Assembly: GCA_937128595.1 (NCBI GenBank)
Contig: CAKZMO010000763.1
Span: 1 to 34,611, forward strand
Source of the DNA: an uncultured cyanobacterium
Lineage (GTDB): Bacteria; Cyanobacteriota; Cyanobacteriia; CAKZMO01
DNA length: 34,611 bases
Reading direction: 5' to 3'
The notes beneath the pieces are model-generated. The model saw nothing but the letters and a program-made list of their open reading frames with translations. It was not told the DNA's origin and did not search any database. How positions within the stretch are numbered: the stretch's first letter is position 1; each line of letters begins with the position of its first letter. Below, in pieces: positions 1-34,611 of this stretch. The position numbers and the translations under genes were made by a program.

Positions 1-51
1 GCGCGGCTTCTCCATCAATATCTGTCCTAACCTATCTGCGCATTGCTATAG
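1..51. repeat. Palindromic dispersed repeat, half copy at left edge
   Basis: The first 51 bases are the reverse complement of 34557-34607 with one mismatch, and of 12717-12767 with two. They begin exactly in the stem of the hairpin seen complete at 12750-12788 (arm GCGCGGCTTCTCCAT). This is therefore the outgoing half of a copy whose other half lies outside the window. It is followed by a 12-bp motif, AGTTAGCTCATT, present twice in tandem at 56-79. Confidence 0.85.
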
Positions 52-8191: not shown

Positions 8192-8339
8192 CTACAACAC
8201 TCCTTCGTTTAGGGTTGAGTAGAGAGTGACATGCAAAATAGAGCGTCGTTGGACGAAGCCGCAACTCAACATTCACAAAGAAATTACGTTGCACAGCATG
8301 GAATGATGTGGAAAGATTCAACTCATGGATGACCTGCTA

Positions 8340-8366
8340 TAGGGGCATCGCATTGCGATGCCCCTA
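8340..8366. repeat. Dispersed hairpin repeat
   Basis: TAGGGGCATCGC at 8340-8351 and GCGATGCCCCTA at 8355-8366 form a perfect 12-bp stem with a 3-base loop. GC-rich hairpins with a GTAGGGGC...GCCCCTAC frame are common between cyanobacterial genes. No T tract follows, so it is probably a mobile palindromic repeat and not a terminator, though it may stabilise the 3' end of the transcript from 7814. Confidence 0.7.
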
Positions 8367-8510
8367 CCAAAATCATTCTTCGAATGTGCAACGCCAAAAA
8401 ATTGATGTCTAGTGTTCCTCTAACACAGTATCTACCAAATTAATGGTGTCACGACAATAGCTTCCTAAGGCACACGTCTTCTACTGTGCTGTTTTCATCC
8501 AGCATTGCAG

Positions 8511-12498: not shown

Positions 12499-12615
12499 TT
12501 GAAATTTGGCATCTGAGTGGACTTAGTTTTTAGCGATTAAAGAGGGTAAATGGTTTTCTGTCCTGATTTGATCCCCACAGATGGAAGAAAGAAATGGTAG
12601 ATGCACCCTGATTCT

Positions 12616-12647
12616 AATCCCTGGCTTCGGCCAGGGATTTTCTTTTT
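12616..12647 (+). terminator. Orphan rho-independent terminator, plus strand
   Basis: AATCCCTGGC (12616-12625) pairs perfectly with GCCAGGGATT (12630-12639) around a TTCG tetraloop, followed by TTCTTTTT. This is a textbook terminator, but only in the plus direction. Both flanking genes (DUF815 starting at 12498, oxidoreductase ending at 12816) are on the minus strand. It therefore implies a short plus-strand transcript starting within or before 12499-12600, possibly a small RNA. Confidence 0.85.
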
Positions 12648-12716: not shown

Positions 12717-12788
12717 GTATAGCAATGCGCAGATAGGTTAGGACAGATATTTATGGAGAAGCCGCGCACCGCGCGGCTTCTCCATAAA
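12717..12788. repeat. Palindromic dispersed repeat, complete hairpin copy
   Basis: A left arm of about 33 bases (TATAGCAATGCGCAGATAGG and on) runs into a perfect 18-bp hairpin: TTTATGGAGAAGCCGCGC (12750-12767), loop ACC, and its complement to 12788. The first 51 bases match the window's right edge (34557-34607) and the reverse complement of its left edge with two or three differences. Bases after 12788 only loosely resemble the expected second outer arm, so this copy is symmetric only in its core. It lies between the oxidoreductase gene and the orphan terminator and encodes no protein. Confidence 0.88.
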
Positions 12789-12815
12789 CTATTGGTTTGA
12801 TATCAGCGCGTAGCA

Positions 12816-13898
12816 CTATATATTGACCCATGCCTGTTGTTGATTCGACGCGTGAGTCAAGTCCATCAGCCGCTGAGAATACAAGCCTTCTTCTAAGCAG
12901 GGAGCCGTGGATTTTCCCTGGGCAATGTCTTGCAACCAGTGATCGACAACGCGGATGAAGGGCGCTAGACGACCATCGGGATAGGTTTGCCCAAACTGAA
13001 GTCGCTGGGGAATGCTCATCTCTTCAAGCGGCTTGCCGTCTTGACTTCCCCAAAGCCTAAACCCATGAACATAATCGTTCTGGTTGTCGCTACCTAGAAC
13101 GAGTGTGCCGCGATCGCCATATACTTCAACCCAGTGGCCTCGACCCTGATAAGTCACAGAACTCAATAGCACTTGGCAAGGCGTTCCATCTGCCATATCG
13201 AGCCAAATTCGGCAGGTATCGTCACTATCTACAGGCTTCATTTCCCCTGATTGAGGGTCGGGTCGCTCGGTGATCCCAGTGCTAAAGCTACCGCAGAGAC
13301 GACTGACTGGGCCAAACAACCAGGCAAGATAGTCGAAGGTATGGGAGCCAAATGCACCCAAGGCTCCACCGCCAAGATCACGACGGGCATACCAGTTCCA
13401 TGCTCGCTCTGGGTTTGCTCGTCCAGACGCAAGCCAGTCTACTTTGATAAACCGCTTTTTCCCAACATAGCCATCATCCAAAAGCTCCGCTAAGCGCATC
13501 CAGGCCGGTACGTAGCGAAATTCGAAATCTAGACAGGTGACGAGGTTTTTGGCGATCGCCAAATCCAGCAGTTCCTTGGCCTCTCCTGCGTTCAGCGTTG
13601 TTGGTTTTTCGATCAATAGATGTTTCCCGGCTTCGATCACCTGCTTTGCCATCTCGTAGTGAACGAAGGGTGGCGTTGCAATGCTGACCGCCTGTACTTC
13701 GGGGATCGCAAGCAAGTCTGCAACAGATGAACACGCGTTAGGAATCTGGTATTTGCTGGCGATCGCTTCTGCTTTTTGCGGATTCCGATTGTACACGGCA
13801 ACCAGATGGGCTTCGGGATGAGTTTGAAACCCTGGGATATGGATTTTTTCTCCAAACCCCGTACCAATAACGCCGATGCCGATAGGAGACTGAACCAT
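12816..13898 (-). CDS. Gfo/Idh/MocA-family NAD(P)-dependent oxidoreductase
   Basis: This is a 360-residue protein with the two-domain layout of sugar and inositol dehydrogenases of the Gfo/Idh/MocA family. The N-terminal Rossmann fold shows GVIGTGFGEKIHIPGF (nucleotide loop GxGxxG-like at 11-16) and the catalytic EKPTTLN motif with Glu97-Lys98-Pro99. The C-terminal alpha/beta domain includes the glycine-rich DLGGGALGAFGSHTFDYLAWLFG, typical of the substrate side. The substrate cannot be predicted; relatives act on polyols, sugars and biliverdin. It lies 165 bases downstream of the class II aldolase on the same strand. A shared transcript is possible, but no functional link is shown. There is no obvious ribosome site before the ATG. 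Confidence 0.88.
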   Translation of the reverse strand: MVQSPIGIGVIGTGFGEKIHIPGFQTHPEAHLVAVYNRNPQKAEAIASKYQIPNACSSVADLLAIPEVQAVSIATPPFVHYEMAKQVIEAGKHLLIEKPTTLNAGEAKELLDLAIAKNLVTCLDFEFRYVPAWMRLAELLDDGYVGKKRFIKVDWLASGRANPERAWNWYARRDLGGGALGAFGSHTFDYLAWLFGPVSRLCGSFSTGITERPDPQSGEMKPVDSDDTCRIWLDMADGTPCQVLLSSVTYQGRGHWVEVYGDRGTLVLGSDNQNDYVHGFRLWGSQDGKPLEEMSIPQRLQFGQTYPDGRLAPFIRVVDHWLQDIAQGKSTAPCLEEGLYSQRLMDLTHASNQQQAWVNI

Positions 13899-34556: not shown

Positions 34557-34611
34557 CTATAGCAATGCACAGATAGGTTAGGACAGATATTGATGGAGAA
34601 GCCGCGCACCG
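34557..34611. repeat. Palindromic dispersed repeat, half copy at right edge
   Basis: These bases are the incoming arm (TATAGCAATGCACAGATAGG and on) plus the first hairpin arm and loop (GCCGCGCACCG) of the repeat seen whole at 12717-12788. 34557-34607 equals the reverse complement of 1-51 at 50 of 51 positions. The window stops within the hairpin loop. Confidence 0.85.

What the first reader, a model, noticed from the sequence alone, without database searches (positions are those of the whole stretch)
12717..12788. Palindromic repeat present once whole and as half-copies at both window ends
The arm-plus-hairpin at 12717-12788 recurs at 34557-34611 and, reversed, at 1-51. Each end of the window stops at the hairpin loop. 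Joined tail to head, the two ends would rebuild a palindrome of roughly 105 bases. Where the middle copy has T...A at the stem position next to ATGG/CCAT, the edge copies have G...C. The pairing is thus kept while the bases change, as expected if the hairpin itself is maintained. It carries no protein, so it looks like a non-autonomous element (MITE or REP-like) of the host genome.
Basis: partly seen in the sequence, partly recalled or inferred. Interest (0 to 1): 0.6.

Follow-up and report, generated by a model that had tools for sequence, protein, structure and literature searches.

The report
Miniature jumping repeat of a cyanobacterium
The palindrome is one of roughly 250 copies of a 103-base "passenger" jumping element that carries no gene, has the end signals of IS630-type transposons and is scattered over a cyanobacterial genome; it is an ordinary kind of element, but its central hairpin records an unusually clear trail of replication template switching.

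Summary
The repeat is real. The window is a whole contig (C763) of a 6.4 Mb, 801-contig cyanobacterial draft. The genome holds 247 left-arm and 255 right-arm matches (controls 0). 89 of 102 full copies I read are exactly 103 bp. The two window ends are two other copies cut by the assembler about 50-54 nt inside; they do not make a 105-base palindrome.

It is a MITE of the IS630 (Tc1/mariner-like) family. Its left end fits the terminal signal of 50 cyanobacterial IS630 ends (25/28 to the nearest). It is bounded by TA, and an unoccupied homologue of one site carries a single TA. The genome has no Y1/REP-type transposase, so REP/RAYT is out. No intact matching IS630 was found in this genome, so the copies are probably stranded.

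Stem pairing is kept while bases change, here and in a related family in genome G038. Loop inversion (ACC 37, GGT 45 copies) independent of linked markers, and one multi-base stem extension, point to template switching rather than selection as a sufficient cause.

The parts
12718..12820 (+). Complete 103-bp MITE copy (T-A variant at stem pair 35/69, loop ACC)
   Evidence: Aligns ungapped with 88 other 103-bp copies
12718..12745 (+). Left end, IS630-type terminal repeat TATAGCAATGCGCAGATAGGTTAGGACA including the TA (12718-12719)
   Evidence: PWM of 50 IS630 ends scores 33.8 here (IS ends themselves 27.4-45.2); best non-element site in the window 1.7
12750..12767 (+). 5' arm of the central hairpin
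   Evidence: 100% complementary to 12771-12788
12768..12770 (+). Hairpin loop ACC; occurs inverted (GGT) in about half of the copies
12771..12788 (+). 3' arm of the central hairpin
   Evidence: covariation
12793..12820 (-). Right end; outer 14 nt match IS630 ends, inner GTTAGGAC box absent (GATATCAAAC here); TA at 12819-12820
   Evidence: outer-14 score 15.7, the highest of the window; whole-end score 10.0, below the IS range
1..50 (-). Left 50 nt of another MITE copy, cut by the contig end
34558..34611 (+). Left 54 nt of another MITE copy, cut by the contig end

Best explanation
A non-autonomous miniature element (MITE) of the IS630/Tc1-mariner superfamily. Inferred life cycle: an IS630-type transposase made elsewhere recognises the about 28-bp left end (TATAGC..TACGC......GGTTAGGACA) and the outer 14-16 nt of the right end, cuts the element out and inserts it at a TA, which is duplicated. 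Shown here: repeat family, exact boundaries, TA at both ends, match of the ends to IS630 ends, one unoccupied homologous site with a single TA. Inferred: mobilisation in trans, and that the mobilising IS630 has been lost from (or is not assembled in) this genome. The central hairpin is kept paired mainly because replication template switching copies one arm from the other and flips the loop; any function of the hairpin (blocking read-through, terminating transcripts) is not shown.
For: 247 left and 255 right arms, controls 0; 102 full copies read, 89 of exactly 103 bp, mean divergence about 2.5%, conservation stopping at TATA/TATA with random flanks. IS630 elements (NF033545 187 bits, PF13358 143 bits) in G370, G379, G206 end in ...TTGTCCTAACGTATGCGCGTAGCGCTATA, the reverse complement of the MITE left-end type; 31 3' ends and 19 5' ends of cyanobacterial IS630 share the signal; the four best PWM sites of the whole window are the three left ends and the one right end of the element. 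Unoccupied homologous site L361 against L031: ungapped with a single TA. Hairpin: 11 further two-sided changes, all complementary, where about 0.6 are expected from the single-change rate; A3 covariation 0/500 shuffles; G038 family likewise. Loop ACC/GGT on all marker backgrounds; G038 core CGCGCAGCG 26 / CGCTGCGCG 14; L104 stem extended by 6 bp at once. Mechanism precedents: ISY100 inserts at TA, needs only the transposase, and mini-elements with 30 bp per end transpose (PMC2170065); template switching homogenises arms and inverts spacers (PMC8604942, PMC8794818).
Against: No intact IS630 with matching ends in the 99.94%-complete draft. The right end lacks the inner box found at both ends of the ISs, so recognition of that end is inferred. 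Only one clean unoccupied-site comparison; a second (G038 L397) fits a 2-nt duplication but the homologues carry TT/TG/GT/CT, not TA. Two copies (L015, L022) have 12- and 21-nt flanking repeats not expected of IS630.
Confidence: 0.92

Rival explanations
1. REP/BIME-type palindrome spread by a REP-associated (Y1/HUH) tyrosine transposase.
For: Hairpin-centred short intergenic repeat; cyanobacterial GTAG-type REPs exist (PMC3733652); GTAG occurs in the right end.
Against: No PF01797 (Y1_Tnp) match in this genome while 5 control genomes ring; unit is 103 bp with two defined ends and TA boundaries, GTAG is not terminal; ends match IS630.
Confidence: 0.02
2. The hairpin is kept by selection (as transcription terminator, RNA element or protein site), and the compensatory changes are its signature.
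For: Strong covariation in two genomes; hairpin kept in most copies although its sequence differs between the families.
Against: Loop orientation is close to 50:50 on every linked-marker background, a multi-base stem extension occurs (L104), uncompensated pairs near the loop persist (pairs 47/57, 49/55), and hairpin-less 61-64 bp copies exist. Template switching predicts all but the last (PMC8604942, PMC8794818). Selection and template switching are not exclusive.
Confidence: 0.2
3. The ACC/GGT loop inversion and mixed stem variants are artefacts of short-read assembly mixing near-identical copies.
For: The draft is broken at this repeat; copies are about 97% identical; contamination estimate 7.95%.
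Against: Both orientations occur in copies with unique flanks on both sides; the element (103 bp) is short enough for single reads; the two orientations of a different core recur in another assembly, G038; two-sided stem changes are mostly private to single copies.
Confidence: 0.07
4. The window is a small circular or linear replicon with palindromic (telomere-like) ends, since both ends stop in the same hairpin.
For: Both ends carry the same arm in inverted orientation.
Against: 20 of 22 left-arm copies cut by stretch ends stop at the same depth, 48-55 nt; the contig holds core chromosomal genes (EF-Tu, EF-G, gltB-like glutamate synthase, tRNA-Ser, tRNA-Lys).
Confidence: 0.01

Closest known systems
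RUP (repeat unit of pneumococcus), MITE attributed to IS630-Spn1
   Same: About 107 bp, about 110 copies per genome, terminal repeats like those of an IS630, strongly folded (PMC3049150)
   Different: Different sequence and host phylum; in RUP the matching IS is present in the same genome, here no intact matching IS630 was found; right end here lacks the inner IS box
Cyanobacterial IS630 elements with TATAGC..TACG......GTTAGGAC ends (e.g. in G370; Phormidium tenue FACHB-886 = G206; Zarconia navalis, Symploca, Nostoc and others)
   Same: Left terminal 28 nt (25/28 to the nearest), TA boundary
   Different: They are about 0.95-1 kb and encode the transposase; both of their ends carry the GTTAGGAC box
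MITE family of genome G038 found here
   Same: Same ends (ATAGGTTAGGACA; TTTAYATCA(TGA)GCGCGTAGC), 104 bp, central hairpin with 3-nt loop, core inversion
   Different: Hairpin sequence unrelated; copies far more diverged; some copies lack the hairpin (61-63 bp)
ISY100 of Synechocystis
   Same: Tc1/mariner/IS630 member of a cyanobacterium, TA target (PMC2170065)
   Different: Autonomous; I did not compare its terminal sequence directly
Nezha MITE of cyanobacteria
   Same: Cyanobacterial MITE
   Different: Attributed to ISNpu3-like elements (PMC3049150); Nezha sequence not available here, no sequence comparison made

Membership tests
IS630-derived MITE | Short, high-copy, no coding capacity for a transposase | tested here: met
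   103 bp, 247/255 arms
IS630-derived MITE | Ends matching those of an IS630-family element | tested here: met
   Left end scores within the range of 50 IS630 ends; right end matches in the outer 14 nt only
IS630-derived MITE | Insertion at TA with TA duplication | tested here: met
   TA at both ends in at least 85 of 89 copies, flanks random, no longer adjacent repeat beyond chance; one unoccupied homologue with a single TA. Rests on one clean empty site
IS630-derived MITE | Autonomous partner in the same genome | tested here: not met
   Only distant or broken IS630 copies; nearest a remnant at C471:69-260, 55% identical. Not a strict requirement for a MITE (partner may be lost)
IS630-derived MITE | Mobilisation by the IS630 transposase | not testable with these tools
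   Needs an in vivo or in vitro assay
REP/RAYT | Y1/HUH tyrosine transposase in the genome, framed by the repeat | tested here: not met
   PF01797: 0 matches
REP/RAYT | 20-40 bp palindrome tagged at one end by GTAG or CGTC | tested here: not met
   103-bp unit bounded by TATAG...CTATA; definition from PMC3733652
Template-switch-homogenised inverted repeat | Arm homogenisation, loop inversion, clustered stem changes | tested here: met

The most novel reading that the evidence does not exclude
An IS630 MITE lineage shared patchily by distant cyanobacterial families (strict right-end pattern in only 2 of 291 genomes) has kept both ends, including a right-end inner box (GATRTAAAAC) not seen in its IS relatives, while its hairpin sequence was wholly replaced and keeps being rewritten and flipped by template switching; hundreds of paralogous copies per genome thus form a natural recorder from which template-switch and loop-inversion rates could be measured.
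Probability: 0.4. Interest if true: 0.5.

Novelty: new member of a known kind. Interest (0 to 1): 0.3.

Why it matters
It names a new high-copy MITE family and ties it to a widespread group of cyanobacterial IS630 elements through a shared terminal signal. More generally it is a caution: compensatory stem changes in mobile hairpins, often read as selection for structure, here come with loop inversions and stem extension that show a mutational origin. The many paralogous copies, with recurrent loop flips, could be used to measure template switching in wild bacteria.

Tried and rejected
REP/RAYT: no Y1 transposase. Autonomous partner in the own genome: all DDE_3 hits examined; C49 (L219), with the MITE right end next to a transposase, proved to be an ISAzo13-family IS inserted into a MITE copy. 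Longer target duplications: adjacent repeats in 91 copies are at chance, only L015 and L022 stand out. Plasmid collection: no match. Viral contigs: no exact match to the 20-nt core. Literature search for the sequence GGTTAGGAC with cyanobacteria: none in the held library. G-U versus A-C asymmetry as an RNA test was considered and dropped, because insertion orientation relative to transcription is unknown. Palindrome by joining window ends: rejected. The organism of the window could not be named with these tools.

Full report
WHAT IS THERE. The window is the complete contig C763 of a cyanobacterial draft genome G000 (6,418,143 bases, 801 contigs, contamination estimate 7.95). The arm plus hairpin reported at 12717-12788 is real, but it is the left two thirds of a 103-bp element at 12718-12820: TATAGCAATGCGCAGATAGGTTAGGACAGATATT[stem-loop-stem]ACTATTGGTTT.ATATCAGCGCGTAGCACTATA. 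The left arm has 247 and the right arm 255 genome matches at up to 3 mismatches; the reversed control patterns have none. I read 102 distinct full copies; 89 are exactly 103 bp with about 2.5% mean divergence, and conservation stops abruptly at TATA on both sides.

WINDOW ENDS. Both window ends run into the left arm of a copy and stop 50 and 54 nt inside. Of 22 left-arm copies cut by the end of a stretch, 20 stop 48-55 nt inside, and many right-arm copies stop at a similar depth. This is where the assembler lost its way in a repeat, near the loop only because the loop lies in the middle of a 103-bp unit. The proposed 105-base palindrome would fuse two left halves and is not found among the full copies. 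The G...C pair claimed for the edge copies cannot be read from the window, because the 3' stem is absent there; it does hold genome-wide.

WHAT KIND OF ELEMENT. A related family with at least 175 copies sits in genome G038 of another family. A class-wide pattern search led to G370, G379 and G206, where the same end lies at the 3' end of an IS630 transposase gene (NF033545 187 bits, PF13358 143 bits). A scan of genome contigs gave 64 relatives in cyanobacteria (one record is labelled Tatlockia, L243). 31 3' ends and 19 5' ends give the signal TATAGCACTACGCATATACGTTAGGACA. Scored over all positions of the window, the four best sites are the three left ends (33.8, 33.8, 29.6) and the right end (10.0) of this repeat; the next is 1.7; genuine IS ends score 27.4-45.2. 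The right end fits in its outer 14 nt but lacks the inner GTTAGGAC box, in both G000 and G038.

TARGET SITE. Both ends carry TA. Flanking bases are close to random and adjacent direct repeats are at chance level over 91 copies. Joining the flanks of copy L031 around one TA aligns without gaps to an unoccupied homologue in L361, which has a single TA; a G038 copy in another repeat fits a 2-nt duplication, although its homologues carry TT, TG, GT or CT there. This agrees with IS630/Tc1-mariner elements, which insert at TA and duplicate it; the cyanobacterial ISY100 does so in vitro with its transposase alone, and mini-elements with 30 bp per end work as well as the full element (PMC2170065).

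PARTNER. No intact IS630 with such ends is assembled in G000; the nearest is a 64-residue remnant at C471 (55% identity), others are 30-42% identical and broken or of another type. So movement in trans is inferred, and the copies may be stranded. No Y1 transposase exists in the draft, which removes the REP/RAYT reading.

THE HAIRPIN. In 89 own copies the 18-pair stem is 98% paired (82 distinct rows) and its covariation is reached by 0 of 500 shuffles. Outside pair 35/69 there are 11 two-sided changes, all complementary, and 40 one-sided ones; about 0.6 two-sided changes would be expected by independence (my calculation from these counts). In G038, 16 of 23 pairs have two-sided changes. Three further signs identify the process: the loop is ACC in 37 and GGT in 45 copies, on all three backgrounds of linked markers; in G038 the core also occurs in both orientations (26 and 14); and copy L104 has its stem extended by six pairs through a cluster of changes. 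Arm homogenisation, spacer inversion and clustered changes are the described products of DNA-polymerase template switching between inverted repeats (PMC8604942, PMC8794818). Compensation therefore does not demonstrate selection for the hairpin. Hairpin-less copies (61-64 bp) exist, so the hairpin is not strictly required for persistence.

LOCAL EFFECT. The copy at 12718-12820 lies at the 3' end of a Gfo/Idh/MocA oxidoreductase gene on the minus strand (12816-13898); the element's terminal CTATA supplies its TAG stop codon (12816-12818). The protein still covers the full C-terminal domain profile, so the insertion is probably harmless.

DISTRIBUTION AND NOVELTY. The strict right-end pattern occurs in 2 of 291 cyanobacterial genomes sampled. 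The full element has no match among plasmid records, and its 20-nt left-arm core has no exact match in viral contigs. I found no report of the sequence in the held literature, which misses many subscription papers. It is a new member of a known kind; RUP of pneumococcus, a 107-bp repeat with IS630-Spn1-like ends (PMC3049150), is the closest analogue.

Noticed in passing
window 8285-8395 (- strand); also L007:1121, L022:1397, L026:333, L107:1597: A second MITE family, about 110 bp, ends GGCGTTGCACA...TGTGCAACGCC, central hairpin TAGGGGCATCGCATTGCGATGCCCCTA, apparent 8-bp target duplications (e.g. AATTTTAG in L007, GATTTTTT in L022); the window copy's far end is degenerate.
   Followed up: partly
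L006 and L364 (reverse strands): The second MITE is nested at the same position in the right arm of the IS630 MITE, flanked by ATTGGTTT, at two loci with different outer flanks, which suggests that the nested composite moved or was copied as a unit.
   Followed up: partly
window 12595-12645 (+): Rfam NsiR1 (nitrogen stress-induced RNA 1) match, 53.1 bits against a gathering score of 39, ending 72 nt before the MITE.
   Followed up: no
L328, element ending at 345: A variant with the same right end but a different left end and hairpin (TATAGCTACAGCCAGTAGTCTTAGGACATAAAC...AACCCGAGG...CCTCGGGTT), about 90 bp.
   Followed up: no
L015 (reverse strand) and L022:148-250: Two copies with long flanking direct repeats (12 and 21 nt, a few bases off the left end), not expected of IS630 insertion; shuffled flanks never exceeded 11.
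   Followed up: partly
L219 (C49:1-1905): ISAzo13-family IS inserted in a MITE right arm; its transposase frame is interrupted.
   Followed up: yes
L397, L133, L135, L204, L124, L406 (genome G038): Another dispersed repeat in G038 (GCGCACGGAACAGCAAGG-TTTCAGC-ATCCCGAATTCACGTTA), into which one MITE copy has inserted.
   Followed up: no
window, many sites: Frequent GGCGATCGCC octamers (the cyanobacterial HIP1-type motif), which dominate the short repeat families.
   Followed up: no
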